From NCBI GenBank assembly GCA_037157565.1, contig JAZHRO010000055.1, positions 39,897,001 through 39,961,000 of the forward strand: 64,000 nt of DNA, written 5' to 3'. Both the position numbers and the translations under genes were made by a program. Below the pieces are notes generated by a model. That model saw only the letters and a list, made by a program, of their open reading frames with translations. It searched no databases and was not told where the DNA came from. Every line of letters begins with the position of its first letter. The stretch's first letter is position 1. This document shows positions 23,961-56,884 of this stretch, piece after piece. The DNA comes from Thalassia testudinum (lineage: Eukaryota > Streptophyta > Magnoliopsida > Alismatales > Hydrocharitaceae).

Positions 23961-24189
23961 GATGTCCAGATGAGTTATAGGACGTCCAAAACCCTTAGCC
24001 AACTCCCGCACACCTCAAACCCACTTCTGCAGTATTATTGGACGTCCAGACACTTGGTCAGACGTCCAATTTCTGTAGAATACCCAAGACAGAACCTAGA
24101 AACCCTCCTGACTCTAATTGGACGTCCAAACAATAAGTCTAGACTTCTGATTTTTCATTATAAGACGTCTGATAAGTTTATTGGATGTC
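23961..24189 (+). promoter_or_regulatory. GACGTC dyad array in A LTR
   Basis: Eight copies of GACGTC or one-off variants start at 23961, 23981, 24041, 24061, 24121, 24142, 24164 and 24184. They form pairs 20-22 bp apart; pair starts repeat at 80 bp. Flanks are often GGACGTCC or AGACGTCT. It lies about 770-990 bp upstream of the TATA box. It could be a binding array for a dimeric host factor or a source of structured RNA; neither is shown. Confidence 0.7.
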
Positions 24190-24530
24190 TGTAACTGCCC
24201 TCCAGACCCTATTTTGATATTCAAGCCTTGATCTTAGATCTCTAGCTCCCTAAACCCAATTCTAACCCCCTAGGAACCTAAATTAAGGTGCCCTAACCTT
24301 AGTACATCACATCTAGACCTCCCTAAGGACCTAATTAGGTCCTCACTAAACCTAATTGACTTGGATCATGGTCAATCTCTTCATTCTATTCAATTGGGCT
24401 CATTGAGTCCAATTGAGCCCTGATCTCAGCATACACTATCCAATTGGACTCAGTGAGAGTCCAATTGACCTAGACCTGACTTAATTAAGTTATTTTACTC
24501 TCAATTAGGTTTCTACACACCCAATTAAAC

Positions 24531-24688
24531 TTGTATTAAGTTTAATTACACTTTACCTTAGTGAATTAGGGTTTGCAACCCTAATTTGAGACCTAACCTA
24601 GACCTAAACTTGTATTAAGTTTAATTACACTTTACCTTAGTGAATTAGGGTTTGCAACCCTAATTTGAGACCTAACCTAGACCTAAAC
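24531..24688 (+). repeat. 79-bp tandem duplication in A 3' LTR
   Basis: Two identical 79-bp units (24531-24609 and 24610-24688). The 5' LTR and copies C and D have one unit, so the duplication is private to this LTR and arose after insertion. Confidence 0.9.
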
Positions 24689-24943
24689 CCATTAGAACCT
24701 ATCCTAACCCACCTAACCACTTAGGGCATGACCACACACACACCCATTCATGCACTCCCACACCACCTAGAGTATTCTAGGACCTTCCAAAGGTGGCGCC
24801 ACCTTGGTTGCCAAAAATAGCAACCAAGGATGAGTCTTCTCTTAGATCCACTTTTGGTGGAACTAAGAACCACCCTCTCTCTCTCCTTGGATGGCCACAC
24901 TTGGAGCTCTCTCTAGAGAGTTCCACACTTCTCTAGAGAGTCT

Positions 24944-24971
24944 CCCTTAGGTCTATAAAATGACCTAAGGG
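24944..24971 (+). promoter_or_regulatory. TATA box inside a perfect inverted repeat
   Basis: TATAAAAT (24954-24961) is flanked by CCCTTAGGTC and GACCTAAGGG, a perfect 10-bp stem with the TATA box as loop. It is the likely LTR promoter. The same place is deleted in the 5' LTR and in solo LTR C. Confidence 0.7.
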
Positions 24972-25743
24972 GTGACCATTTACACCCATCCACTCTTGGT
25001 TCCATTTTAGCTTAGCTTCATTCCACCGCCACTCCACCTTCATGAGTAGCTTCACCATGGCCACCACCATCTCCATGCTAAGATGTTGGATCACCTCCTC
25101 AACTTCTCTCCAAGGGCCAGCCTAAGCACCATTGGCCGCCCCCCCTTCTCTCAACCAAGTCAAAGGCCATCGAAGCCCACCTCTGAATGCCCTTAGTTCT
25201 GATAGATTAGATTATAGTTCTTCATAGTTTTACTGCTTTATTTATTCCTTAATAGTGTAACTCTAAATTCTCCCCCAATGATGCATGCATAATCCCCCCT
25301 TAGATTCATGTATGCAATCATTTTCTGTTAGCTAGATTTATGTTTTCAAGCATTCCTCTACAAGCTTTTCATGAGCTTTATGTTGCAATCACCATCATGA
25401 ATCAATGAACATCTTTTTCTATATATATATATATCTATTTGTGAAAATCACCATAAGCCTTGTTGCAATAATTTTGTGTGATTGAAGTTGCATGTTTTAA
25501 TTTCTGATATTCTGGCAACTAAGCATGTCATGCATAAATACGAACTTAGCATAAATCGACATGCGATTTTGAATAAGTAGAGCAAGAGAGATCGATTTCA
25601 AATCTGCATTTTCATAAATGCCTCCCAGAGACGAACAACCAGGACTCAAATCTCGTTATCTTAGAAATTATTTTTGTTGATCATATTTTGCAACTGTACT
25701 ACAATGCATTTCTTATCAAAAATGCACTTTACGATACCCAACA

Positions 25744-26463
25744 ACCATCCATTTTTGACTCTCGTTGCTAGAAGGGTGAAAATTGGACACGACAATCTTC
25801 AAGTGGTCGCAAGGCATTGAAGGTCTCCTCGATCTGCTCTAACCAATCCTCAACTTCATTCAGGCCTTCGTCTCCCTTGAAGGTGGGAGGCTTCAGTTTG
25901 CTAAAATTCTCAAACAACTCGCATTGCTACCATAGTGGGTTCTCTAACTCAACTCTGAGTGGTAGTGACTCCTACTCCACACTATCCTCAAAGTTTGAGG
26001 GTGATGGTGGAGCTTCGCCCATACATCCTATGCCATCTCCGAATCTAGCACCACTTTGACCCCTGCCTCAACCTCCAGCATGGTCCCCACTATGTTGCTT
26101 ATTCCAACACATAGAGACCTCCTTGCTCAATACGTCCTAAGGCTCCCCACCTTCGTCCTACTACAGTGGGAGATGCTGCCCAAGGAATGCAAACAACATC
26201 TAAGTGATCTATTGGGCCTAAGCACCCTGGCTCTGCTCCTCTTGAGCTCCACCTTGACAGCCACCACATCCCCTCGTCTACCATGTGCTCCACACTTGGG
26301 AGGCATCTTCTACAAGGAAGATCTCCAAGAATTAGATACAAAAGATACACTCACGAGAAAAATAATTCAAGAACTTCATATCAACTCAATTCAATGGCTA
26401 TGAGTCGTGATGTATCATCAATCCACTTAGCTCATCTAGCATATTCTATGTTTATACGAGACA
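25744..26463 (-). pseudogene. gag: gag of chromovirus H, N-terminal part, with leader
   Basis: On the minus strand a start Met at 26306 begins MPPKCGAHGRRG, like the basic start of Del/Tekay gag. Near 25900-25800 is a clear capsid start: LKPPTFKG, then VEDWLEQIEETFNALRPLED. Stops interrupt the linker. The gene is cut at 25744 by element A and continues at 2859. 26307-26463 is the leader, cut off from its primer site by element I. Confidence 0.8.
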
Positions 26464-28246
26464 ACCTTTGTAACGACCCGGTTCCCGAGTCCCTACGAGA
26501 CACGAGAACCGGACCGACTCGACTAATCCCAAGACCCAGTCGTCCAACGAGGAAGTAACCAAAAGACAGTAAAATAAACCACATTCAGCATGAATATAAC
26601 TAACAGTAAAAAGTACAGCAGTAAGGAAAGAAACTACTACAGTAGGCACCACCACAACAGTAAAACAACATTTATCGTATAACAAAAACTGCAGGTAAAG
26701 AAGGTACAGCGGAAACAAAACTACTCACTAGAACAGAAACAAAAGAAGGTACAAAGCTGTGGCAACTCTACTGGACCCTACTCGGCCTAGCGTCCTCTGC
26801 AGCCGCCGACCCTGGCTGCTCAACACCTGGTCCTGAAAAAGGTAACGAGTGTAACACGTCAGCAAAACGCTGAGTAGAGTGGCAAACTAACTAAAGGCAA
26901 CAGTAGAGTGTACAGTAGCTGTTATGTTCTATTACTTCCTTTATTTACATCTTTCAATTTTTCTCACTATTTCATTTACTTCTCAGATCCTTTACTTGAT
27001 CTCGAATGTCCTCGTGGGACGATCTTGATTGCAGTCTTTTCCAACAGTAGAAGTAGCACGTGGTGCTCTCCTGGCCGGGAGAGTCCCCCGTGGTGATCCT
27101 ACCCTCAGTCAACCACCCCAAGGTCACTGACAGACGTAACGGTGACTACGGCACGCGCGATAAACGCACAGGTAGCTAGCCCGTACTGGCACGCGGTCAG
27201 TCGTTTCCGTTAACGGGTGCGCCCAAAGCACAGCACGGAACCAGGGCAGAGCCCTCTCAGTAACAGGGGTCCAACCCCTCCACAGTAACCAAACCGGGGC
27301 CTTGCCCCTCCACAGTCCGCGCACCCTCGTCTGACTACCCTGGTTTGCCCTAGTGGGCCTAACAAGTCGGTGAAGGAGGCTAGCAGAACCCCGGGGCCCG
27401 TGGGGTAGCTAGTACTCTCCTAACACTACTAGCTCTCCTCGGTACTACGTACACGAGGGCCAACAAGTCGGTACAGAGCGGCCAAGCCTAACCCCGGGTC
27501 CCTGGGGCGGCTGGCCCCACTCTGCACTAAAACAGGTACAGGTACTTCCCTTGGTACTGCGTACCCAAGAGACAGTACAACTACATCTCAGTTCCATTCC
27601 TTTTCTTTCCAGGAGTTCCACTCCTAATTCCCCGTAGGGTTCCAGCCCTTTATCTCAGAACATCATATGTTTCACTTTCCAGATTCACGTTCTCAATTTC
27701 CATGATCTCAAACATGTTTCTTTGTTCATAACAGGCAGCTGTTAATTAATTTCACAGGCAGCTTATATATTCCTTTCCATTTTTCCAAGACTGCAGTAAT
27801 ATACATTCCACTAGTTTTTCCATCCTAGGATTCATGCCATATCCTAGGATCTATCATACAATCTAGTTTTCCGGCCCTAGGATTCATGCAACACCTAGGA
27901 GCTATCATTCCATACATTTCTCATTCCTAGGGTTCATGCAATGCCCTAGGTTCTAGTTATGGTTCCATACTTTAACAGATTTTATTAATGCTTAAAACCA
28001 CTCTACCAGGTACAACGGAAGTAATGGGGGCGTGGTCGGGAATCCCGCGCGCCTCCGCGACTCTCAAGACGGCAACCGAACGAGGTCCTATCACAAGGAT
28101 CAAACACAAGGAGTGTCTCAAAACAGTGTATAGCTACTGTAGGCGGGTAGAGGAATAAATTCTGAATCGAACGCAACTCGAATCGTGGAAGACGGAGCCC
28201 AAACGGGCCCTAAACGGGTCGAGAAAGACAATACTGTGCAAAATCA

Positions 28247-28586
28247 GACGTCTGGAACTCCTTCCAGACGTCTTAAACGGTGGATCAGAGAATTACCTGT
28301 TCGGCGTGGTTCCCCGGACGTCCAGAAGTCTGTGGCGACGTCTCTCCTAGATCCCAGACGTCCGATGGTCTCTCCGGACGTCTGGAGGTCACTCCCGCCG
28401 TCTGGTACAACTTCCAGACGTCGGATTCGCAAAGGATGACGAATCCGAACACCTGCGCACAGCCAACCCTCCTCCTTCAGTACGGTCAGTCGACAAAAGA
28501 AGAAGGAGAAAGCGGAACTCACCTTTCAGACGTCTGTATGATCACATAGACGTCGACCTTGCCGTCTGGATATCAGTCCAGACGTC
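28247..28586 (+). promoter_or_regulatory. GACGTC dyad array in I LTR, inner block
   Basis: GACGTC starts at 28247, 28267, 28317, 28337, 28357, 28377, 28417, 28529, 28549 and 28581, with one-off copies at 28397 and 28561. Most lie in the 12-bp palindrome CCAGACGTCTGG or a near form. Steps are 20 bp, with 50, 40 and 12 where a copy is lost or a pair ends. The matching block in the 5' LTR is 33217-33556. Confidence 0.75.
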
Positions 28587-29034
28587 TGATTCTGGAGATT
28601 TTTCCAGAATCAGAACCTCGCTCGGCCTCCGCTCGCGACGCCGCCCGCGTCGCACCTCGCGCGTCCGCTGCTCCGCCCGCAGCAGGTCCCTCTTCGCGAC
28701 GCTCTGCGCCCCCTGCGCCCTCCGCCGGCCGGCCAAGCCGCTCCCGGCGAGCTCGCCCTCACGGCAGAGTCCCGCCCTCGCACGCCGCAGCTCCTCCGCG
28801 CCTTTGCTGCGCCGCTGCCGCTGCGCCCTCGCGTCCGCTCGCTCCGCCCGCAGCAGGAGAGGAGGAAGATGGTGGAGACGGGAGGGGAGGCGCGCCCCCT
28901 CCCCCTTTTAACGCCGCGCGGAGAGGAGGAGAGAGACGGCCGCAGTCGCCTGCAGCCGCAGAGAAGATGCGGATCGCAGGTCTGCGCGCACAGGCGCGCA
29001 GACGAATATCCCGTGCGAGTATAACTGTTCGTCA

Positions 29035-29092
29035 GACGTCTGTAAACTATCCCGGACGTCTGGATGTGATCCCAGACGTCTTAAAAGACGTC
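29035..29092 (+). promoter_or_regulatory. GACGTC dyad array in I LTR, terminal block
   Basis: Copies at 29035, 29055, 29075 and 29087 (steps 20, 20, 12) lie within 80 bp of the LTR start. The other LTR has two more copies here (34005, 34025, 34045, 34057, 34077, 34089), owing to a 32-bp unit. Confidence 0.75.
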
Positions 29093-29198
29093 TGGGGTAC
29101 GCGCTCGTTACAATATAACAAACTCAAAGGAAGTTTCGTCCCCGAAACTTGCGCCAACTAAGGTGCGGAAAAAGGATGTCCAAATAACCATAACAAAC

Positions 29199-31456
29199 TC
29201 AAAGAGGACCGAAGCCGGTCCGAAAAGACGTACCCGCGAAAAGCTCTGGGTACCGCTCCCGCATTGCCGCCTCAGGCTCCCAGGTAGCCTCCTCGTACCG
29301 CTGGCTCCTCCACAAAACCTTTACCAGGGGTACTTGCTTTCGTCTCAACCTGCGGACGGCTCGGTCTAGGATCTGCACTGGCCGCTCAGGGTAGGTCAGG
29401 TCGTCGCTCACCTCGACGCTCTCGTGACTCAGTACGTGGCTGAGATCGGCTACGTACTTCCTGAGGTTGGACACGTGGAACACGTCGTGCACACCAGAAA
29501 GCTGCGGGGGAAGGGCAAGTCTGTAAGCAACGGGTCCAACCCGCTCCAGGACCTCGAAGGGCCCCACGAACCTCGGCGCGAGCTTCCCTCTCACCCCAAA
29601 CCGCTGTAAGCCCTTCATGGGCGAAACACGAAGAAAGACGTGGTCCCCAACCTCGAACTGCACCTCTCTGCGTCTGCGATCTGCGTAGCTCTTCTGTCTG
29701 CTCCTGACAGTGCGGAGTCGTCTGTGGATCTGTTCAACTACCTCCTGACTCTGCCGGATCATCCTGGCGCCAACCTCCCACTTGGTCCCCACCTCAACCC
29801 AACTCAAGGGTGCCGTGCATTTCCGTCCGTACAGAGCCTCGTAGGGAGCCATGCCGATGCTCGAGTGATAACTGTTGTTGTATGCAAACTCTGCCAGGGG
29901 CAGGTGTTCCTCCCAAGAGCCCCTCCAGTCTAGTACACAGGCACGCAAAAGATCCTCAAGTGTCTGTATCGTGCGTTCCGACTGTCCGTCCGTCTGGGGG
30001 TGGTAAGCCGTGCTAAACCTCAACCTCGTCCCCAAAGCCTGCTGAAACTCAGCCCAAAACTGGGACGTAAAGCGGGTATCCCGGTCGGATACGATCTCCC
30101 GCGGAACTCCGTGTAGTCGCACCACATCACGGATATACCTCTCTGCCAACTGTGCTGGTCCCAAAGTGACTCGGATCGGCAAGAATCGTGCCGTCTTCGT
30201 CAACCTATCCACTATTACCCAGACCGCGACGTGTCCTTGCTGGGTAACAGGTAAACCCACCACCAAGTCCATGGTGATGCTCTCCCACTTCCACTCCGGC
30301 ACTGGAAGCGGCTGAAGCGGCCCTGCAGGCCTCTGATGCTCGGCTTTCACCTGCTGGCACACTAAGCACTGCTGCACGAACTCACCCACATCCCGCTTCA
30401 TCCCTCTCCACCAGAACTCGCGTCTCAAGTCATGGTACATTTTCGTGTTTCCGGGATGTATGGTGAATCTGGAACCGTGTGCCTCAGTCAGGAGCTCTCT
30501 CAACAGCTCCTCGTCTCTGGGGACGCACAGCCGTCCCCTCAAGCGTAACACCTGGTCTGTGAAAGAGAAGTCCCCTGGGTCCCCTGACAGTACTCTGTCG
30601 CGCAAAGACTGCAAGTACGGATCGGCCATCTGTCCCGTGATGATGCGGTCTATCAACTCTGGTCTGGTCTGCCGTGTCACCGTCACTGCCCCACAGTATC
30701 CTCGTAACTCTAGAGGTCGCCAACTGCCCACCTCCTCCAAAAGGCTCCAACTCTGTAACTGTAGACTGGCCAAGCGTGCGGGCGCCTTACGGCTCAAGGC
30801 GTCAGCCACCACATTGGCCTTTCCCGGGTGGTAGGAGATGCTGCAGTCGTAGTCCTTTAGGAGCTCCAACCAACGTCTCTGTCTCATGTTGAGCTCCTTC
30901 TGGTCAAAAAGATATCTGAGGCTCTTGTGATCTGTAAAAATCTCGAAGGTCTCACCGTACAAGTAGTGCCTCCATGTCTTCAGCGCGAAGACAACAGCTG
31001 CCAACTCTAGGTCATGGGTAGGGTAGGTATGCTCATGGGGCTTCAGTTGCCGCGAAGCGTAAGCGACCACGTGACCCCTCTGCATGAGCACACCTCCTAA
31101 CCCCTGCAAGGAAGCGTTCGTGTACACGACGAACCCGCCACTACTGTCAGGAATGGTGAGCACGGGAGCCGAGGTCAACCTCTCCTTCAGCTCCAGAAAA
31201 CACGCCTCACAGGCGTCTGTCCAAGTGAAAGGCACATCCTTCCGAGTCAACTGTGTCATAGGACGTGCAATCTGCGAAAACCCTCTGATGAACCGTCTGT
31301 AGTAACCTGCCAGTCCCAGGAAACTGCGAATCTCAGTGACTGAACGCGGTCTCTCCCACCTGAGCACTACCTCGACCTTGGCAGGATCCACCGCCAGGCC
31401 GTCTCCAGAGATCACATGACCCAAAAAGGTCACCTCCCTCAACCAGAACTCGCGCT
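29199..31456 (-). CDS. pol: truncated pol of I: RT tail, RNase H, integrase, chromodomain
   Basis: An open frame extends from 31688 to 29199 (829 codons), but the first 77 codons are LTR sequence read through the deletion join; pol begins with [12 protein letters not shown]. Residues below count in the 829-codon frame. RT connection 80-180; RNase H about 185-300, with the first catalytic Asp replaced by Asn (VYTNAS, N191) while E228 and D253 remain. The integrase zinc site is H404/H411/C441/C444, and the catalytic triad D474, D535 and E571 (35 residues between the last two) is intact. A GPF-type segment lies near 709 and a chromodomain near 768-815 ([21 protein letters not shown]). The chromodomain would guide integration to marked chromatin. 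Without RT, Gag or protease it cannot act alone. Confidence 0.93.
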
Positions 31457-34114
31457 GAGTCCCTACGAGACACGAGAACCGGACCGACTCGACTAATCCC
31501 AAGACCCAGTCGTCCAACGAGGAAGTAACCAAAAGACAGTAAAATAAACCACATTCAGCATGAATATAACTAACAGTAAAAAGTACAGCAGTAAGGAAAG
31601 AAACTACTACAGTAGGCACCACCACAACAGTAAAACAACATTTATCATATAACAAAAACTGCAGGTAAAGAAGGTACAGCGGAAACAAAACTACTCACTA
31701 GAACAGAAACAAAAGAAGGTACAAAGCTGTGGCAACTCTACTGGACCCTACTCGGCCCAGCGTCCTCTGCAGCCGCCGACCCTGGCTGCTCAACACCTGG
31801 TCCTGAAAAAGGTAACGAGTGTAACACGTCAGCAAAACGCTGAGTAGAGTGGCAAACTAACTAAAGGCAACAGTAGAGTGTACAGTAGCTGTTATGTTCT
31901 ATTACTTCCTTTATTTACATCTTTCAATTTTTCTCACTATTTCATTTACTTCTCAGATCCTTTACTTGATCTCGAATGTCCTCGTGGGACGATCTTGATT
32001 GCAGTCTTTTCCAACAGTAGAAGTAGCACGTGGTGCTCTCCTGGCCGGGAGAGTCCCCCGTGGTGATCCTACCCTCAGTCAACCACCCCAAGGTCACTGA
32101 CAGACGTAACGGTGACTACGGCACGCGCGATAAACGCACAGGTAGCTAGCCCGTACTGGCACGCGGTCAGTCGTTTCCGTTAACGGGTGCGCCCAAAGCA
32201 CAGCACGGAACCAGGGCAGAGCCCTCTCAGTAACAGGGGTCCAACCCCTCCACAGTAACCAAACCGGGGCCTTGCCCCTCCACAGTCCGCGCACCCTCGT
32301 CTGACTACCCTGGTTTGCCCTAGTGGGCCTAACAAGTCGGTGAAGGAGGCTAGCAGAACCCCGGGGCCCGTGGGGTAGCTAGTACTCTCCTAACACTACT
32401 AGCTCTCCTCGGTACTACGTACACGAGGGCCAACAAGTCGGTACAGAGCGGCCAAGCCTAACCCCGGGTCCCTGGGGCGGCTGGCCCCACTCTGCACTAA
32501 AACAGGTACAGGTACTTCCCTTGGTACTGCGTACCCAAGAGACAGTACAACTACATCTCAGTTCCATTCCTTTTCTTTCCAGGAGTTCCACTCCTAATTC
32601 CCCGTAGGGTTCCAGCCCTTTATCTCAGAACATCATATGTTTCACTTTCCAGATTCACGTTCTCAATTTCCATGATCTCAAACATGTTTCTTTGTTCATA
32701 ACAGGCAGCTGTTAATTAATTTCACAGGCAGCTTATATATTCCTTTCCATTTTTCCAAGACTGCAGTAATATACATTCCACTAGTTTTTCCATCCTAGGA
32801 TTCATGCCATATCCTAGGATCTATCATACAATCTAGTTTTCCGGCCCTAGGATTCATGCAACACCTAGGAGCTATCATTCCATACATTTCTCATTCCTAG
32901 GGTTCATGCAATGCCCTAGGTTCTAGTTATGGTTCCATACTTTAACAGATTTTATTAATGCTTAAAACCACTCTACCAGGTACAACGGAAGTAATGGGGG
33001 CGTGGTCGGGAATCCCGCGCGCCTCCGCGACTCTCAAGACGGCAACCGAACGAGGTCCTATCACAAGGATCAAACACAAGGAGTGTCTCAAAACAGTGTA
33101 TAGCTACTGTAGGCGGGTAGAGGAATAAATTCTGAATCGAACGCAACTCGAATCGTGGAAGACGGAGCCCAAACGGGCCCTAAACGGGTCGAGAAAGACA
33201 ATACTGTGCAAAATCAGACGTCTGGAACTCCTTCCAGACGTCTTAAACGGTGGATCAGAGAATTACCTGTTCGGCGTGGTTCCCCGGATGTCCAGAAGTC
33301 TGTGGCGACGTCTCTCCTAGATCCCAGACGTCCGATGGTCTCTCCGGACGTCTGGAGGTCACTCCCGCCGTCTGGTACAACTTCCAGACGTCGGATTCGC
33401 AAAGGATGACGAATCCGAACACCTGCGCACAGCCAACCCTCCTCCTTCAGTACGGTCAGTCGACAAAAGAAGAAGGAGAAAGCGGAACTCACCTTTCAGA
33501 CGTCTGTATGATCACACAGACGTCGACCTTGCCGTCTGGATATCAGTCCAGACGTCTGATTCTGGAGATTTTTCCAGAATCAGAACCTCGCTCGGCCTCC
33601 GCTCGCGACGCCGCCCGCGTCGCACCTCGCGCGTCCGCTGCTCCGCCCGCAGCAGGTCCCTCTTCGCGACGCTCTGCGCCCCCTGCGCCCTCCGCCGGCC
33701 GGCCAAGCCGCTCCCGGCGAGCTCGCCCTCACGGCAGAGTCCCGCCCTCGCACGCCGCAGCTCCTCCGCGCCTTTGCTGCGCCGCTGCCGCTGCGCCCTC
33801 GCGTCCGCTCGCTCCGCCCGCAGCAGGAGAGGAGGAAGATGGTGGAGACGGGAGGGGAGGCGCGCCCCCTCCCCCTTTTAACGCCGCGCGGAGAGGAGGA
33901 GAGAGACGGCCGCAGTCGCCTGCAGCCGCAGAGAAGATGCGGATCGCAGGTCTGCGCGCACAGGCGCGCAGACGAATATCCCGTGCGAGTATAACTGTTC
34001 GTCAGACGTCTGTAAACTATCCCGGACGTCTGGATGTGATCCCAGACGTCTTGACAGACGTCTGGGCCACCTCCCAGACGTCTTAAAAGACGTCTGGGGT
34101 ACGCGCTCGTTACA
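31457..34114 (-). repeat. 5' LTR of I, lacking its inner 18 bp
   Basis: 2658 bp, matching 26487-29112 with four transitions and one extra 32-bp unit near 34045-34080. The missing part is the GGGTCGTTACA end next to the primer site. It starts at 34114 with TGTAACG. The same GACGTC blocks are at 33217-33556 and 34005-34094. Confidence 0.95.
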
Positions 34115-34132
34115 ACCTTGCTCTGATACATC
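34115..34132 (-). other. primer binding site of H, tRNA-iMet type
   Basis: On the minus strand this reads TATCAGAGCAAGGT after the H LTR end. It matches the initiator-Met primer site (TGGTATCAGAGC) apart from its first bases. Its last five bases are the ACCTT duplicated by element I. Confidence 0.75.
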
Positions 34133-42557: not shown

Positions 42558-44411
42558 TGATTGCGCAGCAAGCATAGGTCTTAATTGACCTAAATTAGGC
42601 TAGGACTTAGCATAAGTTAGGGTTATTCATGCATGCATATGCATTATCTGCATCTTTACTGCTTTCCTTTAGCTATGAATAAAATAATGTTATAATGTGT
42701 TGATTAAGTGCATTATGTCGATTGCAAGGAATAAGCTGATCAGGAGCTGGATCTGAAGCTGGATCAGGAATAACAGGAGTTGTAGCAGAGCTGGAGCAGA
42801 AGGCCTAGTTTAGATGTAGGAATAATAATGTAAGGGGGTTAAAAGTTTGCTATTCTATTAAGTAGGAATAAAGTAGTAAAATGTGAAGAGCTTAGGTCGA
42901 TCCTAGCCCTAGGATAGCCTAGAGACTTCCCCAAGCTTTAGCCACCCTTAGATTAGGTCACAACACCCTAGGAAGCCCTAAAACCCTAGTTCCAACCCTT
43001 CTCTGGACGTCCAGATAAGTTTTAAGACATCCAGGACCCTTAGCCAACTCCCGCACACTTCAAACTCACTTCTGCAGTGTTATTGGACGTCCAAACATTT
43101 TGTCAGACGTCTAATTTCTGCAAAATACCCAAAACAGAACCCGAAATCCTTCCTGACTCTGATTGGATGTCCAGACAACAAGTCCGGACTACTGATTTTT
43201 GAGTATAAGATGTCTGATTATATTATTAGACGTCTGATACTGCTCTCCAATTCCTGTTTTGAGATTTAAGCCTTGATCTTAGTTCTCTAGGTCCATAAAC
43301 CCAATTCCAACTCCATAGGAACATAAATTAAGGTGCCCTAACCCTAGTACATCACCTCTAGACCTCCCTAAGGACCTAATTAGGTCCTCACTAAACCTAA
43401 TTGACTTAGATCTTAGTCAATTCCATCAGCCTATTCAATTGGACTCATTGAGTCCAATTGAGCCCTGATTGCAGCACACACTGTCCAATTGGACTCAGTG
43501 AGAGTCCAATTGTCCTAGACCTGACTTAATTGAGTTGTTTTACTCTCAATTAAGTTTCCACACACCCAATTAAACTTGTATTAAGTTTAATTGCACTTTA
43601 CTTTAGTGAATTAGGGTTTATAACCCTAATTTGAGACCTACCTTGACCTAAACCCACTAAAACCCAACCTAATAAACCTAGCCACCTAAGTTTCGACCCA
43701 CACACACCCACACACACCATCCACACAAAAATATCTAGCCTAGAGTTCTCTAGAACTCTCTACCATGTGTGGTTGCCTTGGTTGCCAAAAATAGCAACCA
43801 AGAGCCATTCAATTTTTAGATCCACATTTGGTGGATCTAAAAACCACCATCCACCCTCTCTTTCTCTCTCACTCTCCCACGAGCTCCCACCATAGGCCTC
43901 TCTAGAGAATTCCATAATTCTCTAGAGAGCTTCCCTTAGGTCTATAAAAAGACCCCTTGGGTGGCCATTTGCACCCATTCACTTCCTTGGCATCCATTCC
44001 ACTTAGAATAGCCACTTCCATCTCTACTCCACCTCCACGAGTTGAGCACCACCATGGAGGCCACCATCTCCACACCAGGAAGCTGGATCAGCTCCCCAAC
44101 CTCTCTCCAATGGCCGGCCTAAGTTCCATTGGCCACCCCTCCTTCTTCTCTCAACCATTCAAAGACCATCAAGGACCACCCCTGAATGCCCTTTCATTCT
44201 GCTAGATTTAGATTATGCTCTTCGTATATTTACTGCATTTATTTACTGCTTAGTAGTGTAGTCTTACTTCTCCCCCAATGATGCATGCGAAATCCCCCCA
44301 TCGATTCTTGTATGCAATCATTTTCTGGTAGCTAGATTTAATTTTCAAGCATTTATGTACAAGCTTTCCTCTAGATTCCTTGTGCAACAACTCCCAAATG
44401 AATGAATGAAA

Positions 44412-45774: not shown

Positions 45775-46068
45775 GTGACCTTTAAGGAGGATTTGCTTGG
45801 TTTCTTTGTCTCTTATTTTAAAATCAATTGAGTTGAAACTAATTTTATAACCTTTGGCACAGATTTCACTTACACTAAGAAAATTATGTTTTAACCCTTT
45901 AACTAAATGCACATTATCAAACGATGCAGAAGGGTTACCAATTTGGCCAATACCAATAATACGACCCTTGTGGTTGTTCCCAAATGTAATTGTACCACCT
46001 TCCTGGCAGATGAGATGTAGGAACAAGCTTTCTTCTCCTGTCATGTACTTGGAGCACCCATTATCCAT
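45775..46068 (-). pseudogene. pol: protease domain of copia G
   Basis: The minus-strand start DNGCSKYMTGE is the usual copia protease site (D..CS.HMTG). It continues with ITFGNNHKGRIIGIG, a NVHLVKGLKHNFLSVSE segment and ILLKGH, all typical of the protease-to-integrase region. It stops at the E insertion. Confidence 0.88.
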
Positions 46069-47694: not shown

Positions 47695-47709
47695 CTTCTA
47701 GATAGGTTA

Positions 47710-47722
47710 GGCTCTAATACCA
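47710..47722 (-). other. primer binding site of G
   Basis: Minus strand TGGTATTAGAGCC, two bases inside the LTR end. It matches the initiator-Met site with one change. Confidence 0.8.
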
Positions 47723-47724
47723 AG

Positions 47725-48714
47725 TGAAGGTCCCACGAATCTAGGTGATATACTAAAGGGGAGTGGTCAATAGTATCGCTCAACAATTTTAAAAAAATAA
47801 CTACGAGATAAATTCAAGTCACAGAAAAATCATGCAGAAGTGACACTTAAATTTATAGTGGAAACCCTCTCGGGTAAAAACCACTACCTAAGCCACCCAA
47901 CTTAGGATTTTTCCGACTAGGCAATGCTAGTCAATCCACTAATGCACCACTTGAATGAGAGTGGCACAACCTCTTACAAGAATCCCTTCTCTTATCAACC
48001 TGAATAGAAGCACAACAACAACGAGTCTTCCCAACAACTTGGGACCCGAATGAAAGCAATAGATAAAGATAAATATAATAAAGTCCAATGGAACCTCAAA
48101 AGAAATCAAACTGATATTTTCATAGAGGTATTTTGATTGGTGTGCCTTTTGAAAGAGTAGAAGTAGAAGTGCAGAAGCACTTAAGAGAAAGCACGAGAGC
48201 TCTTTTTCTAGATAGTGTTCTTCTTTGAATGTGTTATGAAAAAGGGCTACCACGGACCTCTATTTATATTAGTAAATTAACCTCAATAAGAAGTCTTTCA
48301 AATCCAATTGGTTGATCAATTAAGGTAGTTTAGTCAATCAAAATGGCTATTAGTTGACCAAACTAGTTATTTGATCAATTATCTATTGGTTGATTAAAGG
48401 TATCTTAATCAACTTCCTAATTTTAATAGATTTGATCAATTAATCAAAAATTTGGCTGATCAAAGTTATTTAGTCGATCAATTAATAATTTGGTCAATCA
48501 ATTAACCTAAAAACTTGATTTTAGAAATTTACGTTTAGCATAAAAAATAATTTGAAGTTCCTTGTAAAATAATCTAGACTCAAAGAAATGTAAAAGACTT
48601 AACAGAAGACTACAACAAGCTTTTTGCTCCTTTCCATGAGTCAACGAGAGAATCTTGAAAGATTAGTCTAGACAGATAACGTAATTTTGGTACATCAAAA
48701 CAGAGGTACTAACA
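47725..48714 (-). repeat. 5' LTR of G
   Basis: 990 bp, left end TGAAGGTCC, right end ACTAACA, colinear with 36169-37123. Many small substitutions separate the two, so G is old. A 104-codon frame at 47939-48253 has no family feature. Confidence 0.9.
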
Positions 48715-49072
48715 TCCTCTTCATCAACGTGAATCCAAACTACACGTAAACAACAATGGAGAAGGAAAAGAAAAGATCACCTTCCACCATGCAACACATG
48801 CCATTGATGTCCTCCAACCATCCCTATCGATCCCCGCATAGCAGAGGAGTTGAAGAGGGTTAGGAGAGGGGGCATATCAAGGGATCGAACATGAAGAGAG
48901 GAAGGAACAACAGTGGGACTCCCCCCCAACCCCAATCTCACAAGAGTCTAAGCATCAATGTGACGATGGTGGACACCAGCACCCTATTTATAGGGTCTTG
49001 GGGTGTGTGCTAGGTCAAATAAAATAATGCGATAGGGATGAAAATGCCCTAGGCATATTCCACATTCCTACA
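48715..49072 (-). repeat. 5' LTR of chromovirus H, outer part
   Basis: Continuation of 34133-36168 beyond G, beginning with the second TCCTC. A palindromic TATA region ACCCTATTTATAGGGT lies at 48981-48996. The LTR probably starts (minus strand) TGTAGGAATG at 49072; that boundary is inferred. Confidence 0.6.
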
Positions 49073-49076
49073 AAGT

Positions 49077-49954
49077 ATGTTTCATGCATTACTTTTGCTA
49101 CGCAACTTGAATTTTTACGAAATCGGTCTTGTTGGAAAACTTACAACAGAAGGAGTTGTCTCAATTATTGCAGATGCCCATAGCCACCCTCCCTATCAGG
49201 TATTTTGGTTTACCATTGCAAGGCAAGAGAATGAAAAAGGACTGGGCCCAGCTTTTTAGAAGGTGTCAATGAAAATGGAAGGGTGGTGCAGTAGGTTCTA
49301 TCAAAGGGGAAACGCATGGTTTTACTTAACTCAATCCTCTCAGCGATCTCGATGTTTTTCCTTTCTATGTCCAAACTGCCAGGTTCGGTGCTAAAGCGAA
49401 TGGACATTTTTTGCAAGCATTTTTTCTGGAAGGGGCTAGCGCACAGTAGTAGATTCTTTCAGCTAGTGCAGTCGAAGTCGGTGTGCACGCCAAAGAGAAA
49501 AGGGGGACTAGGGGTGAGATCTCTACGTGAATTTGGAGACTCCCTATTGCTGAAGTGGGGGGTGATTATCCTGTGTGGAGATGAGGGTCTACGGCAGACC
49601 ATTGTTCGTGACTCCTATGGTGGCAGACGTGGTTCGGAAACAATCAATATCTCCTTTTTGGGACTCCATCTCCAAAGCCATAGTGAAACCCTGGGAGCTC
49701 TTCAAACCAATCTTGGGTTGTGGAGAGAGGTTACAGTTTTGGGATGATGATTGAAGCGGGCTAGGCCGTCTAGTGGATAGATACCCCCATGTCTATGATG
49801 GCTTGGAGAGTAAGCCTCATTGGCTGATATGTGGTAGCAGCAAGATCAGATGTGAGATATACCTTCTACGAGAGGCAGTCTTACTACTAAAGCTGGCGAG
49901 GAAGCAGACTCCATGCACCTTGCTTTAGCTACGTTCAAGCCAAGGGATGGGTTG
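49077..49954 (+). pseudogene. LINE reverse transcriptase, C-terminal part
   Basis: The plus strand shows the end of an L1-type RT and its zinc-binding tail. An FGLPLQGKRMKKDW-like segment near 49200 is followed, in a shifted frame, by LLNSILSAISMFFLSMSKLPGSVLKRMD, then FFWKG, then KRKGGLGVRSLREF...LLLKWG. Frameshifts and stops break it. The 5' part was probably split off by H; the 3' part is cut by L at 49955. It is the oldest layer visible in the right half. Confidence 0.83.
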
Positions 49955-50072
49955 TGTAATTTCTGATGGAGGGGGTGAGATATGCGGTATGAAAATAAGA
50001 TGCGAAAATACTATGTAACAATCACACAAAATGCAATCTCACAAAGCACACAAGAATTTTTAGGTGGAAACC

Positions 50073-52665
50073 TGATAAACGTCAGTTTATCATCATTCTT
50101 ATGCCCTAAAACAAACCTAGCTCTTAGAATTTTAACTACGCAAATGGGTTTTTGGGCTGCATTTAGGCATCATATAGGCTAGGCATGCATTGCATTATTT
50201 TGTTATATTTAACATGTTTATTTGAGTGTTAGGGTTAAAGCAAATAAGCAGAACCCTAGAATCCTGACACTCATGAAGGCAAATGGTGAAGAAGAAGCTC
50301 AATTCAGCTGGAACTCAGCCAGATCCAGCTCCACATAGCTGGATACTAGCTTTCCTGGATTAGGATTAGCTCCATTTAGCTCATCTTGGCTGGATGGCAG
50401 CTCAGGGAAACTCATTCTAGCTAAACCTAGCTTAAGTTAGCTCAGTTCCAGCTCAACTTGGCTGAGTTTAGTTCATCCCAACTCCATTCAATTCAATAGG
50501 AGCTCTAACTAGCTCAACTAAGTCGACATTAGCTTTAGTCAGCTCAGATCCAGCTCAACTTGGTTGAGTCTAGTTCATCCAAGCTTCAGTCAGTTCACTA
50601 AGGCTCCACTAGCTCAACTAAGTTGATATCAACTCAAAACCAGCTCTCTCCAGGTCCACATAGCTCATTGCAGCTCAACTCTTTCTAGCTTAGCTACTAC
50701 TTGTCAACTAGTAGCTAAGCTAGCTCAAGAGTCTCCATCTGAGGCAACTCTAGCTCAACCTAGCCCCAAATAGGTTGAAACCAGCTCACACCAGCTCAAC
50801 TGCCCTAGCTTAGCTACTAACCTGAAAAATAGCTAGCTAAGCTACTAGTTGAGTCTTTATGAAGATTCCCTCAGCTTCCTCAACTCCAATGCAGCATTAG
50901 TCCAGCTCCAGAAAATTTTCCCAACTCCTTCCTCAAATCCTAGCTCCACCATCTGCTACCCTACTAGCTAAGCTCCCAACCTACTCCAACTCCATGGTCG
51001 TCCACCCTTTCCCCTTAACCCTAACTAAACCCTAACCTAACCCACCTAATTTTGGCGCCAACCCTCATCAACCACCACCCCATCACACCTCTTCATGTTG
51101 GTGCCAAAATCACCCACACACACCCCTTCAAAATGGCACCAACCCCCCCTTAAATCTCCACCCTACACATCACCACAAAAGGCTATCTCTACCCTACACA
51201 TAAACCCCCTTCTAGAAGCCTTATGTGGTGCCAACCTTAACCACCTAACTCCACATCTAACCAACCCTAAACCACCCCTAGTTGGCTCCCAAAAAACTCC
51301 TACCCACACCCCTTCATGTTGGCTCCAACACCACCTTCAATCACCACCACCCAATCAACACCACAACCTATCCTAACCCTTCTTATGTTGGCGCCACATA
51401 ACCCTCTCCCTTAACCATCCTAAAGTGACGCCAAAACCGGTTAACCCAACAATAACCACCACTCCATACATCCCTCCTTTTGGCGCCACTTTTTATCTAC
51501 CCTATATTCACCAACCACCACCCTACAACACCATCCTAACCCTACACATACCCTACATGCCACCTAACCCTACCACCATCGATCCTTAACCCTAGTCCCC
51601 ACCTAGGGTTGGCATCAAACACAAAGCATCCCCCCATTTTGGTGCCACCCAATAACAAGACTAGGATTTCCTAACCACCCTCTACAACCCATCCTAGCCC
51701 TCCATCCATTAACTACCCTTAACCCCCTTCCACTCCTATAAAAAGACCAACACCCACCACCATTAATTCACCTTTGGCTACATAATTTTCTACCATACAT
51801 CCACCTTCCATAGACGGCCAAGAGAAGAAGAAGAAGAAGAAGATTAAGGGGATACTATGTCCCCTTGGTGCCTTCCCCTCTTCTCTTCTCTCTTGTGCCC
51901 ACGCCAGCCAGAGGAGAAGCCAGGCAAGGAAGACCTTAGGAGGAGGTCTTGAGGGCGGTGCACGCCCACCCTTGGAGGAGCTTTTGAGGTGGAAACCATC
52001 CACCTTTGGAGGAGCTAAGGAACGCCTCATCTAGGGATTACCAAGAGGAGGACACACCATGGAGGAGCAATTTAAGGAGAAGGAAAAGGAGGAATCCTTT
52101 TCAACTATGGGAGCAGCCGTAATTGGAGCAAGGACCCTCCCCTCTTCATCATCATCATCAAAAGGATATTGAGTTTTTATTTTTGTCTTTTTTTAATTTT
52201 AAGTAGAAGCATTCCTCTACTTGTAAAATAATATCTTCCTTTAGTAAAAGTTTCTTTCTTTAAATTCTTGTTGCAATTCTTATTGCGTTGTGTTGCTTTT
52301 TCCTTAGTGCATACACACACTCTCAATAATTACTCTAGGTCTTCACGTACCTAGAGTGAGCTTAGAAGAGAGAAATTGCTTGTCACTTAGGTTTTAGTTC
52401 TAGTAACTAAGGTGTGGTCGCTTTCTCGTTAACAAAGCTTCCATTACCGGTTATTTCAAAAACCAAAAAAAATTAATATTCAAAAATCAAAAGGATAGAT
52501 TTCCCATTTCTCGAGCAAGAGATTTCAATTTTGCAAAAATTTTCCTCCTTCGATGACCCTAGATACCACCACTATCTAGGTTATAAATTTAAAAGTGAAT
52601 CAATTTTTGCGCGTAACAACGATTCAAAAAACCCGCATTTTACAAACAGCGTAAAAACCCGATCA
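50073..52665 (+). repeat. solo LTR of family E (copy E2)
   Basis: 2593 bp. It starts with TGATAAAC-GTCA-GTTTATCA (perfect 8-bp stem) and ends CCCGATCA. Flanks are AAACC (50068-50072) and AAATC (52666-52670); the empty site in the other L LTR reads AAATC, so the left copy has one change. AGCT array 50296-50870; TATA box TATAAAAA at 51737-51744. The 51030-51720 stretch is rich in Pro/Thr-type cacc and ccaacc words and in GGCGCC. No gene. Confidence 0.9.
50296..50870 (+). promoter_or_regulatory. AGCT array with a pitch near 10 bp
   Basis: AGCT starts at 50296, 50306, 50327, 50337, 50348, 50368, 50378, 50399, 50419, 50429, 50439, 50450, 50501, 50511, 50531, 50541, 50552, 50582, 50611, 50642, 50662 and 50672. 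Nearly all steps are multiples of 10-10.5 bp. It lies 0.9-1.4 kb upstream of the TATA box. Either an eroded 10-bp tandem repeat or sites on one face of the helix. Confidence 0.65.
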
Positions 52666-53809
52666 AAATCCAAACCCGGGTAAAAACTACCACCTAAGCC
52701 TCTTGGCTTAGGATTTCCCGATTTACCAAGTCGATCAAATCCACTAACCAAGTCACTTCAACAAGGGTGACTTAACCTCTTACAACCACACTACTTAGAC
52801 GATGACAGCATACCTCAAACCCCTCCTTTTCATGAGGAGTATTTTGTCTCACGAGGGAGACAGGAATTTGCAAAACGAATACCTGATGAGAACCTCATCA
52901 TGAGCCATAACTAGCTCATTTTGACCTAATACAAAGGATAAAAGCTCCTACATAACTCAAGGAAAGGCTTAACTCAGAGAATTCTGAGTTTAAGAAGAAA
53001 ACAGAAACTAAGGGGTAAAAATGCAATTTTACCAGCACAATCTGCAAGCAGGGTAATTCAGGGTCCAAACACAGGTCAAACAAACCTAATAAGAAGGGAA
53101 GTGGGATGATCTGATCTGATAAGGGCTACAGCAACTCCAAGGAATTAAATGACAATCTGTAACCCTAAAACAAACCCACTTCAATTCAAGAGGTTTGAGG
53201 CAAAGAAAAAATTGAATAAACCCTCTAAAATTCGTAGAAAAATAATCTCTAGGGTTTAGAACCTTCAATTTGGCCTTAGGAACCCATTTTGACCTACGTT
53301 GAAACCATGCCCAATTAATGACTTAATTTGGGTTTTTACATAAATTGATCTGTCAAACAAGGTCTGATCTAGAAATAAAATTCACCATTAGAATCCTTAG
53401 GCTCCATTTAGTCATGCATAAAAACTTGAGCCTAAGAAGAGACCTTCTTGACCGACTTTTCATTTTGGTCCTCATTCATTACGTTTTGACCCTCAACTTT
53501 TGAAACCCTCGCATTTTGGCCCCTAACTCTTCTTCGTTCTTTGCATTTGGGTCCTCCCTGCAAAACCCTGAGCAGCGCCATGCTCCGGCGACCTTGCGTG
53601 AGGCATGGCGCCGCGCAAGGTGAGGGGGACCCCCTGCCAAGTCAACCAGGGGTTCCCTGCGACGTCAGCCGTCGCAGGAACACCCCCTGATCGCTGCAAT
53701 CGCCCATACCGCCCGTGCGAACGTACGGACGGTATGGGTCTCCATCTCCGGCATCCTCCGGCGAGGGAGGCACGTCGTCTCCCTCCGCCCTCCTCTCTGT
53801 TTCTGCCTC

Positions 53810-53817
53810 TATAAAAA
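53810..53817 (+). promoter_or_regulatory. TATA box of F3 LTR
   Basis: TATAAAAA preceded by a gcctc word and about 930 bp from the LTR start. F2 has the equivalent at 41497-41503 (minus). Confidence 0.6.
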
Positions 53818-55070
53818 CCCCCGACGCTATGCCGCTCTCTCCAGCTCGGTTCTGACGGAGAAACCCCCCCCCCTTTCCTCTCTTCCCACTCCGACAGAGG
53901 CCCCCTTGCTCCAGCGGTTCCTCCTCCTCCTCCTCGTCGCTCTGCCGCACTACCAACAGCAGGGCTGCCTTCACCTCCTCTTCCCGCGTCGCGCCGTACC
54001 CAGTACGCGCTCTCCCGCTATCTCCTCGCCGCAGCCCTCTCTCTCTGGGCACCTTCTTCTCCGGCGACAGTCGATACGACTGTCGCCCTGTTCCGGCCCC
54101 CCCTCGTCCCGCCGAGTAGGTACAATCTTTCCTCTTCCTCCCCTCTTTCTTCTCCTTACTGTAATTTGCATAACCACCCCTCGACCGCGCCTAATTGCCC
54201 TCACCTTCCCCATCTCCGGCCAAACTCCGGCGACTCGCTCCCATCACTCCAGCACCCCACACGGCTCGCCGACCCTCACAGAACCTCCACCTCCTAACCC
54301 TGATCAACCTCTGCCCTTCCACTTCCCACCAATCGCCCTCTGCAGACCCACCGACCAAACCCATCTCCCAACCTGCAGTTTGACCTAGGGCGGCCCTTAG
54401 GCTCCGCCCCACCACCTGCAGACCCCCCCGACCACCTTCGCCGTGCTACGGCGAAGGTCCTCCGCGTATCTGATTAGACCGAGAGGCCGTTTCTCTGTGA
54501 GCAGGTACTTCGCTCGCTGCAGCCATTGCTGAGTGAAGCAGCTTCTTCGACCTGCTCCTCCAGGCGCGCCACGCCCAGGTCAGACTCCCAGGCTGCGCGG
54601 GGCATCTCCGCAAAGAAGTCCCAGGCTACAGTTGGGGCAAAGCCTTCGCGTGGAGCCTCGATTGTGCGCTGCCTCCTCCACGCGGGCGTCCAATTGGGGT
54701 GGGACATTTAGTCCCACCTCTGAAACTCACTGCGGTGAGCAGGCGCTTAAAGACAAAAAGTGCCTTAAGCTGTTCGCCTCAGATCACGGGGTGAGGTCCC
54801 CTTCACCCGCCCGATTACCCGGCCTCATCCGCGCTCACGCCCCGCGGACCTGGCCCGACCCGATTAGCCCGACCTGCACTCCTCGCCCACCACCGCACGC
54901 CGGTGGGCCTGGACCTGGGCGCGACCCGCGTACCCAATTAACCTGTTGCTGTGGGAGAGCTTTCCTAAGAGCGAATTCTGAGAGAGAAAGAGACGCGGGG
55001 GGAGGGTAGAGTAGGTTTTGCCCTTTGATCGAACTTTGAGTGTGCAGGCACAGGTGAAGAAGAAGAAGAA

Positions 55071-55510
55071 GAGAAGGCAGGAAGAAGAAGAAGAAAGCCA
55101 CAGAGGAAAGAAGAAAAGACGCACTGTAGCCGCAGCTACTTAAGTCGTCTGATTGAGAAATCAGACGACGCTCTGAAGAACAGAAGGAAGAAGACAAAGA
55201 AGAGAAGCAGAAGACGAAGAGAAAGAAGAATGCACTTGGCCGAGAAAAGAAAGAGCAGAAGAAGAGGAAGCAGACCGCAAAAGAAGAGAAGGCAGGAAGA
55301 AGAAGAAGAAGAAAGCCACAGAGGAAAGAAGAAAAGACGCACTGTAGCAGCAGCTACTTAAGTCGTCTGATTGAGAAATCAAACGACGCTCTGAAGAACA
55401 GAAGGAAGAAGACAAAGAAGAGAAGCAGAAGACGAAGAGAAAGAAGAATGCACTTGGCCGAGAAAAGAAAGAGCAGAAGAAGAGGAAGCAGACCGCAAGA
55501 GAAGAGAAGG
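55071..55510 (+). repeat. purine-rich 215-bp tandem repeat
   Basis: Two units about 215 bp apart (starts 55071 and 55286) with a partial third start near 55500. Almost pure GA except for an inserted hairpin CGTCTGATT-GAGA-AATCAGACG at about 55144; the second copy has one mismatch. Open frames here are low-complexity and not genes. Confidence 0.85.
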
Positions 55511-56243
55511 AAAAAGAAGAAGAAGAAGGCCAAGAAAGAAGGACTGCGAGAAGAAGAAAGAAGAAGAAAAAAAAAGAGAAGAGAAAAGAAGACAGACAAG
55601 AAAGAAGAAGGAGAAGCCAACAAATTCTCTCTCTCTCTCTCTTTATTTTTGTAATAGAAATACTGTACTTCTAGAATACAACTTGCTCCCTGAGTTCGAC
55701 CTCGGGAGAACTTTCATTTCCGAGTAAAAATTGTAATAATGACAATGACTATCTGTACTACAACGTAATTTCTATAACAAAACAACAAAACCTAGTCACA
55801 ACGCCGTTATCAATACCAAACAAAGACAATTACAAAATATCCTATAAAGCCACAAAGTATGTAATAAACCTAGCTACCATAGCAAGGGAAACCTCCCTAT
55901 GATGGAAGTACATCGGCTAGCAACATGTCGTGTGTGAACCATGCAAGGCACTAAGATGCTCTCGTAAACGGAGACAGGAGAGTGGGTGTGTGGCGAAGAT
56001 GTTTCTCTCTAGAGTATAGACAAGGGCTTGGAGAGCAAGATCACTTTCTATCTCTTCTTTTGGACACAATATAAGTGGAAGTAGTTTCTCAAGGTGTACT
56101 TAACCTAGGATGGGTGCTCCTCTATTTATAGAGGTCCTAAGAAGGCCTTGGAAGCTTCTTGTAGCCATTGGAAACAAGGCTCAAGAGAGTGGTCCAAAAT
56201 CTCACCAAAATCAGGATCATTTATGATTCTGACAAGGTTATGA

Positions 56244-56884
56244 GACATCTAGTCTTATGGTCAGACGTTTGGGTCATCGTCTGATCTGATGGTCAGTCAT
56301 CTGATCTAGAAGGGCTGGTCGTCTGGATGGTGTTGAATCAAGATGGACATCTAAGAGTGTAGTTTAATACGTCTGGGAATTTAATTGGATGTCTAACTCT
56401 AAGATGGATTTCTTCCTATTTTCGCAAGATCGACATAGGGATCTAGAGTGTGTTGTACAAATAACAGGTCAGACATCTGGAAAGGGGATTCTCTGTGGGA
56501 ATTGATTTCCCGAGGCTCAAACGACTATGTGGTCTGACAAAAGTGATTTAGGTCAAATATTAGCCGAACGTCTATTTATTAGACTTCTAAAATGCTCTAT
56601 GGATGTCTGAAAGTAGATGTAAGTCTGATTAAGAATTAATCTTCTAAGATAATGGTCTAATAGTCCAACGATCCTATTGTTAGATGTCTGGCAAGGTCCT
56701 CAGATGTCTTGTAAGTCATCTGGACTATGTGTTGGACGTTTTAAGGTGGTAGACAGAGAGTAGGTTTCCAACCTAAGTATTTTGGACGTCTGGACAATAG
56801 GTCAAACGTCTTAAAAGTCAATATCAAACGTCTGATGCCCAGATTAGATGTTTATCAGGTTGTCTGATTTCTATATTGGTTTTC
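56244..56884 (+). promoter_or_regulatory. degenerate GACGTC dyad array in L LTR
   Basis: Motif positions (GACGTC with up to two changes): 56244, 56264, 56276, 56296, 56318; 56346, 56368, 56388; 56582, 56602; 56683, 56703, 56715, 56735; 56785, 56805, 56827, 56847, 56859, 56879. Steps are mainly 20, 12 and 22. Individual copies are eroded, but the spacing is kept. It lies 120-760 bp upstream of the TATA box in element direction. Confidence 0.62.

What the first reader, a model, noticed from the sequence alone, without database searches (positions are those of the whole stretch)
23961..56884. Spacing-locked GACGTC dyad arrays shared by LTRs of three unrelated retrotransposon lineages
The Athila-like LTRs A, C and D (23961-24189, 6702-6910, 43006-43234), the chromovirus I (28247-28586, 29035-29092 and the partner LTR) and the Sirevirus-type copia L (56244-56884) all carry arrays of the palindrome GACGTC. 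Starts are 20 bp apart within pairs, with 12 or 22 bp between pairs; I and L share the runs 20-12-20. The rest of these LTRs is not similar and other families here (B, F, H, G) lack the array, so common descent of the LTRs does not explain it. Palindromes in Sirevirus LTRs have been described in maize. Sharing with two Ty3 lineages and a common spacing grammar suggests convergent capture of a host dimer-binding factor (GACGTC is a bZIP C-box core), anti-silencing, or structured RNA. This is my main candidate for an undescribed system.
Basis: partly seen in the sequence, partly recalled or inferred. Interest (0 to 1): 0.87.

Follow-up and report, generated by a model that had tools for sequence, protein, structure and literature searches.

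The report
Shared base-exact LTR palindrome arrays
Three unrelated kinds of plant jumping gene carry, in their control regions, the same short palindrome repeated at exactly fixed distances, which looks like docking sites for one still unidentified protein complex.

Summary
The window has 48 GACGTC against 5.8 expected, clustered upstream of TATA-like boxes in LTRs of an Athila-like family (A, C, D), a chromovirus (I) and a Sirevirus (L).

In the 4.26-Gb genome, exact pairs 20 bp apart number 478,420, 12 bp 85,986, 22 bp 49,205. Distances 13-19 bp together give 7,728 and 21 bp 2,769. The site is RGACGTCY: pairs at 20 bp with Y..R flanks at both sites number 25. Linkers of 22 bp nearly always carry TTA at one end (48 of 50 listed).

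Cores are conserved against linkers in most divergent comparisons. Linkers of different lineages are no more alike than chance.

Best reading: U3 enhancer arrays bound cooperatively by a dimeric DNA-binding factor. The factor is unknown; the TGACGTCA form of the bZIP C-box does not fit. Palindrome arrays in Sirevirus LTRs are published. Their sharing with two Ty3 lineages and the base-exact distance code were not seen in nine answered literature searches. Function is inferred, not shown.

The parts
23961..24189 (+). Array A in U3 of Athila-like LTR 23493-25743; starts 23961, 23981, 24041, 24061, 24121, (24142), 24164, 24184
   Evidence: TATA-like box at 24954
6702..6910 (-). Array C in LTR 5244-7360 (minus) of the same family; probably a solo LTR (flanks GTCAC and ATCAC, 4 of 5 alike)
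   Evidence: its TATA-like box falls in an alignment gap
43006..43234 (+). Array D in LTR 42558 to about 44736 of the same family
   Evidence: TATA-like box at 43943
28247..28586 (-). Array 1 in the left (3') LTR 26469-29112 of chromovirus I
29035..29092 (-). Array 2 in the same LTR, next to its 5' end; 20-20-12
33217..33556 (-). Array 1 in the right (5') LTR 31457-34114 of chromovirus I (inner edge cut)
34005..34094 (-). Array 2 in that LTR; one more 32-bp unit (20+12) than the left LTR
29199..31694 (-). Rest of pol of chromovirus I: RNase H, integrase, SH3-like domain, chromodomain
   Evidence: Pfam
56244..56832 (-). Array L in U3 of a Sirevirus LTR that starts at 57142 (minus); decayed
   Evidence: TATAAATA at 56130 minus
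57143..57156 (-). Polypurine tract and AT before the LTR of L, as in the Sirevirus AT/TG site
   Evidence: site described in PMC2829016
58625..59275 (-). Copia-type gag pieces in the body of L
   Evidence: Pfam Retrotran_gag_2, E 1.9e-9; DUF4219 below its cut-off
2860..4115 (+). LTR E of the Athila-like family without the array, followed by a PBS-like sequence at 4119

Best explanation
The arrays are enhancer-like cis-regulatory arrays in the U3 part of the LTRs. Each dyad, about YYR-GACGTC-YRR, is the binding site of a dimeric DNA-binding factor. Neighbouring dimers touch, so they bind only at fixed offsets: 20 bp within a pair, 12 or 22 bp between pairs. Pair-to-pair periods are then 32 or 42 bp, about 3 and 4 helical turns, which lines the complexes up on one face of the DNA. 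Binding would drive or permit transcription from the TATA box downstream. Each lineage came to use the same host factor (or one made by another element) and multiplied its sites by duplicating whole units. Shown: sites, exact distances, flank preference, place upstream of TATA-like boxes, core conservation in most divergent comparisons, gain or loss of whole units. Inferred: the protein, its dimeric and cooperative binding, activation of transcription, separate recruitment.
For: Distances exact to one base genome-wide: 20 bp 478,420, 21 bp 2,769, 13-19 bp together 7,728, 12 bp 85,986, 22 bp 49,205. Flanks: 25 pairs with Y..R at both sites; among 61 distinct linkers Y follows the core in 119 of 122 ends. 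22-bp linkers have TTA at one end in 48 of 50 listed places, 12-bp 43 of 100, 20-bp 0 of the first 48. Arrays upstream of TATA-like boxes in A, D, I, L and both LTRs of L020. Core against linker changes: I-L010 1 of 78 vs 60 of 370; I-L024 3 of 42 vs 65 of 181; I-L026 5 of 60 vs 107 of 329; D-L012 2 of 30 vs 96 of 268. Larger gaps phased near 10.1 bp. Whole-unit change of 32 bp between LTRs of I and a 52-bp repeat in C1.
Against: No binding, expression or chromatin data. The binder is unknown. TATA-like matches occur elsewhere too and C lacks the one of its family. Core conservation is not significant in A-D, A-C, C-D, C-L012 (p 0.054), L010-C1, I3-I5, L022-L and the two LTRs of L020. Phasing is weak if each distance is counted once (power 5.3). 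The TTA rule is partial at 12 bp: 6 of 27 distinct linkers. Duplication of units alone can spread a spacing within a family.
Confidence: 0.6

Rival explanations
1. Shared by exchange: one ancestral array moved between the lineages (template switching, gene conversion or capture of a U3 piece) and was then kept for the same use. This concerns origin and is compatible with the binding model.
For: Same distances, flanks and TTA rule in all three; short cross-lineage matches inside arrays: A-L 36 and 30 bp at 83%, L012-C1 Sirevirus 30 bp at 87%, L015-chromovirus 36 bp at 83%, and L023 44-49 bp at 80-82% to both a Sirevirus and a chromovirus.
Against: Middle 8 bases of linkers are no more alike between lineages than column shuffles: chromovirus-Athila p 0.71, chromovirus-Sirevirus p 0.998, Athila-Sirevirus p 0.10. 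No match outside arrays at E 0.01.
Confidence: 0.22
2. RNA structure: the palindromes act in the RNA as hairpins, for packaging, dimerisation or small-RNA production.
For: All five arrays fold better than dinucleotide shuffles, z -3.9 to -7.4. With 8-bp sites fixed and linkers shuffled z is still -2.4 to -5.5. Maize Sirevirus palindromes are small-RNA hotspots (PMC5311732, PMC10760457, passages).
Against: With 12-bp sites fixed z falls to -0.1, -1.0, -1.8, -2.0 and -3.1, so most of it follows from the palindromes. It gives no reason for 20 but not 19 or 21 bp. The inner bases of linkers are little complementary.
Confidence: 0.08
3. A protein made by one of the elements, for instance an anti-silencing factor, binds the arrays and others exploit it.
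For: Element-made factors with short repeated targets are known (VANC of VANDAL elements, recalled, not looked up). No data here.
Against: No candidate gene was found or sought genome-wide; the frames scanned in the window gave gag, pol or nothing.
Confidence: 0.08
4. Neutral minisatellite: spacing comes only from tandem duplication of 20-, 32- or 52-bp units.
For: Whole-unit changes exist.
Against: Linkers within an array differ while cores are intact, cores are kept between subfamilies about 25% apart, and the same distances recur in unrelated lineages.
Confidence: 0.02

Closest known systems
Sirevirus repeated motifs, RM boxes (Bousios 2010, PMC2829016; section 9 and passages read)
   Same: Many palindromic boxes in U3 upstream of a TATA box, starting 200-400 bp into the LTR. 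One of 13, Usier, has the consensus GTCGGACGTCCGAC, which contains GACGTC.
   Different: 12 of the 13 have a CGG-CCG core, absent here. The authors call the motif Sirevirus-specific within Ty1/copia; here two Ty3 lineages share it. No fixed spacing is mentioned in the passages seen.
Maize Sirevirus palindromes and small RNAs (Bousios 2016, not held; cited in PMC5311732 and PMC10760457, passages)
   Same: Palindrome clusters in the LTR cis region. PMC10760457 finds the same palindrome, CACCGGACNNNGTCCGGTG, in copia and Helitron structured regions: sharing across superfamilies has a precedent. Half sites GGAC/GTCC are alike.
   Different: Other core with a spacer; read there as RNA structure; no distance code in the passages seen.
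CpG islands of plant Del LTRs (PMC4029996, abstract and passages)
   Same: A 5' variable CpG-rich region in the LTR of chromoviruses in monocots; LTR I has a GC-rich stretch between its arrays.
   Different: No palindromes or spacing described (the word does not occur).
bZIP C-box GACGTC (PMC7468500, passages)
   Same: Same hexamer with ACGT core.
   Different: Flanks here R..Y; TGACGTCA (recalled as the strong form) does not fit.

Membership tests
Sirevirus RM boxes (PMC2829016) | palindromic, at least 8 copies per element | tested here: met
   L: 16 sites with at most one mismatch; L020: 14 and 16 per LTR, 11 and 14 exact
Sirevirus RM boxes (PMC2829016) | clustered 200-400 bp into the LTR, upstream of the TATA box | tested here: met
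   L: about 310-900 bp into the LTR, TATAAATA at 56130; L020 about 250-750 bp, TATA 119 bp further
Sirevirus RM boxes (PMC2829016) | CGG-CCG core (12 of 13 published) | tested here: not met
   flank is T/C then G/A then G/A
Sirevirus RM boxes (PMC2829016) | restricted to Sireviruses (tested by the authors within Ty1/copia) | tested here: not met
   present in chromovirus I and Athila-like A, C, D
Sirevirus (element L) | PPT followed by AT/TG attachment site | tested here: met
   minus strand at 57142-57156
chromovirus (element I) | integrase with chromodomain | tested here: met
   Pfam rve, Integrase_H2C2, Chromo (26.1 bits, cut-off 25.1); the Tekay/Del label is recalled
Athila lineage (A, C, D, E) | Athila-type protease, RT and PBS | tested here: inconclusive
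   Retrotrans_gag above cut-off, RVP_2 below cut-off, no RT match; motifs and PBS judged from recall
bZIP C-box in TGACGTCA form | T..A flanks | tested here: not met
   25 pairs with Y..R at both sites
bZIP C-box | bound by a bZIP protein | not testable with these tools
   no binding data

The most novel reading that the evidence does not exclude
One undescribed cooperative DNA-binding complex reads a strict code (RGACGTCY dyads at 20, 12 or 22 bp, with a TTA flank at 22-bp steps) that Sireviruses, chromoviruses and Athila-like elements adopted separately, so that a large part of the LTR retrotransposons of a 4.26-Gb genome hangs on one transcriptional switch.
Probability: 0.4. Interest if true: 0.88.

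Novelty: new variant of a known kind. Interest (0 to 1): 0.74.

Why it matters
If one factor binds nearly half a million site pairs in unrelated elements, it would be a shared licence, and weak point, for retrotransposon expression, and could help explain which lineages fill large plant genomes. The base-exact distances make the binder easy to recognise: it must prefer 20 bp over 19 or 21. The case also allows a test of whether unrelated elements converge on one host factor or trade regulatory modules.

Tried and rejected
Canonical TGACGTCA reading: rejected on flanks. Common descent of the LTRs: rejected, no similarity outside arrays. Neutral minisatellite: disfavoured. RNA structure as the cause: weakened. 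A viral-contig scan for the paired motif gave one GC-rich contig with an unrelated repeat. Other plants could not be searched: no relatives are held and the protein database was off. Genome-wide counts of the TTA rule did not complete (22 bp; 20 bp: 106, 110, 118, 122, 127), nor was 23-31 bp. One search was a first, one-sided conservation count, replaced. Literature: ten searches sent, nine answered, rejected for a short term. I saw listings, plus passages of PMC2829016 (section 9 whole), PMC5311732, PMC4029996, PMC7468500 and PMC10760457; PMC4728375 is not held. None of the titles and abstracts listed describes GACGTC arrays across lineages; most subscription papers are not in this library.
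Full report
WHAT WAS CHECKED. The window holds 48 GACGTC where shuffled sequence gives 5.8. LTR ends used in that script differ by up to about 11 bp from those in 'parts', which does not touch the sites.

WHICH ELEMENTS. I: the frame 29199-31694 minus holds RNase H, integrase, an SH3-like domain and a chromodomain, so it is a chromovirus. The frame runs into the right LTR copy, whose inner edge is cut; no gag, protease or RT domain is matched in it, so an internal deletion is inferred. ACCTT flanks both outer ends. L: on the minus strand AAAAAGGGGGAG-AT/TGTTGG marks a Sirevirus 3' LTR start (AT/TG site described in PMC2829016), with copia gag in the body. A, C, D and E are LTRs of one family, 79-87% alike among A, C and D. 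E is followed by a PBS-like sequence; the Athila label of the gag-protease-RT pieces at 7719-11266 rests largely on recall.

POSITION. TATA-like boxes lie downstream of the arrays on the element's own strand: A 24954, D 43943, L 56130 minus, I 27769 and 32739 minus. Other TATA-like matches occur in the scanned regions, so these are assignments by position. C lacks the box of its family. In a second Sirevirus, L020, both LTRs have the array with TATAAATA 119 bp downstream of the last site. The arrays are therefore placed in U3.

GENOME. The window belongs to an assembly of 4,261,771,670 bases. Exact pairs, start to start: 20 bp 478,420 (control 3,075); 12 bp 85,986 (5,715); 22 bp 49,205 (5,775); 21 bp 2,769 (2,813); 13-19 bp together 7,728 (13,078). 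The control is the pattern read backwards and is not matched for CpG. So 20 bp is about 170 times commoner than 21 bp and about 430 times the mean of 13-19.

SITE. In 61 distinct 20-bp linkers (99 used) and 37 linkers from assigned lineages, the core is followed mostly by Y, R, R, and from position 4 on there is little preference: a dyad of about 12 bp, YYR-GACGTC-YRR, with 8 free bases between. Pairs with Y..R at both sites number 25 genome-wide. GGACGTCC pairs at 20 bp number 1,437 (control 50); many listed ones have the linker of the first Athila A pair, so intact Athila pairs are widespread. TTA stands at one end of the linker in 48 of 50 listed 22-bp places (22 of 24 distinct), 43 of 100 listed 12-bp places (6 of 27 distinct) and 0 of the first 48 listed 20-bp places. 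In assigned lineages it is 12 of 12 distinct 22-bp linkers (Athila and Sirevirus), 4 of 7 at 12 bp (chromovirus and Sirevirus) and 2 of 76 at 20 bp. Many of these come from related copies.

PHASING. 20+12 and 20+22 make 32 and 42 bp, about three and four helical turns. The 69 larger neighbour gaps (25-140 bp) in 17 arrays show a period near 10.1 bp, power 21.5 against a 95% level of 6.6 from jittered gaps; counting each distance once the power is 5.3, and no null was run for that. Related copies are not independent.

CONSERVATION. Changes in cores against linkers. Chromovirus: I-L010 1 of 78 vs 60 of 370 (p 8.7e-5); I-C1 1 of 54 vs 38 of 262 (p 0.006); L010-C1 1 of 48 vs 16 of 240 (p 0.32); the two LTRs of I 1 of 84 vs 1 of 400 (p 0.32). 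Subfamilies about 25% apart: I-L024 3 of 42 vs 65 of 181; I-L026 5 of 60 vs 107 of 329; L010-L024 3 of 42 vs 69 of 183; L026-L024 2 of 36 vs 65 of 194, each p below 3e-4. Athila: A-L012 4 of 36 vs 76 of 240 (p 0.01); D-L012 2 of 30 vs 96 of 268 (p 7.7e-4); C-L012 p 0.054; A-D, A-C and C-D show no difference. Sirevirus: L022-L020 p 0.0026, L-L020 p 5.7e-4; L022-L p 0.54; the two LTRs of L020 p 0.34. CpG at sites is kept better than elsewhere over the eight pairs taken together (50 of 77 vs 94 of 288), but in only one of the ten pairs at p below 0.05. [quoted passage not shown]), but not in Sirevirus, where two of four pairs go the other way. Sites were those exact in either copy; alignments may be anchored by the sites.

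SPREAD. Of nine 10-kb stretches picked by round coordinates, three hold a 20-bp pair of exact sites: L010 chromovirus, L012 Athila-like, L015 Sirevirus-like. Of six 1.5-kb stretches picked because a pair or array was listed there, two are Sirevirus (L021, L022), two chromovirus (L024, L026), one unclear (L023) and one unplaced (L025).

CONVERGENCE OR EXCHANGE. Linkers of different lineages are no more alike than column-shuffled ones, and LTRs of different lineages match only in 30-49-bp pieces inside arrays. This favours separate recruitment; an old exchange with later linker change stays possible.

MECHANISM. Base-exact distances, flanks tied to the neighbour's distance, conserved cores with free linkers and a U3 place are what cooperative binding of dimers predicts. 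Change of arrays by whole units is seen directly: 32 bp between the two LTRs of I and a 52-bp repeat in C1. Fast linkers could mean pressure from small RNAs; this is inference, in line with small-RNA hotspots on maize Sirevirus palindromes (PMC5311732, PMC10760457, passages).

KNOWN OR NEW. Palindrome arrays upstream of TATA are a published trait of Sireviruses, one of which (Usier) contains GACGTC (PMC2829016). In maize one palindrome is shared by copia and Helitron structured regions (PMC10760457). Sharing with a chromovirus and an Athila-like family and the distance code were not seen in the nine answered searches, in a library that lacks most subscription papers, so priority is not certain.

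Noticed in passing
2860-11266: An Athila-like element (LTR E, PBS, gag to RT pieces on +) seems interrupted by LTR C (5244-7360, minus), probably a solo LTR with 5-bp flanks alike in 4 of 5 bases.
   Followed up: partly
49955-59862: The right-hand Sirevirus LTR piece 59316-59862 matches 49955-50070, 52666-52883 and 55812-56032: the LTR of L is split by two insertions.
   Followed up: partly
28600-28980 and 33570-33950: A very GC- and CpG-rich stretch lies between the two arrays of each LTR of I, like the CpG islands of Del LTRs (PMC4029996 passages).
   Followed up: no
L015 4834-5253: 20-bp pairs recur about every 132-134 bp in a Sirevirus-like LTR.
   Followed up: no
11278-13013 and 17216-18930: Direct repeats 89% alike, perhaps LTRs of another element, without a GACGTC array.
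   Followed up: no
L025 626-651: A lone intact 20-bp pair in DNA with no match to the arrays' LTR families.
   Followed up: partly
L018 9735-9900: A GC-rich viral contig has its own short repeats with GACGTC-like ends; unrelated by eye.
   Followed up: partly
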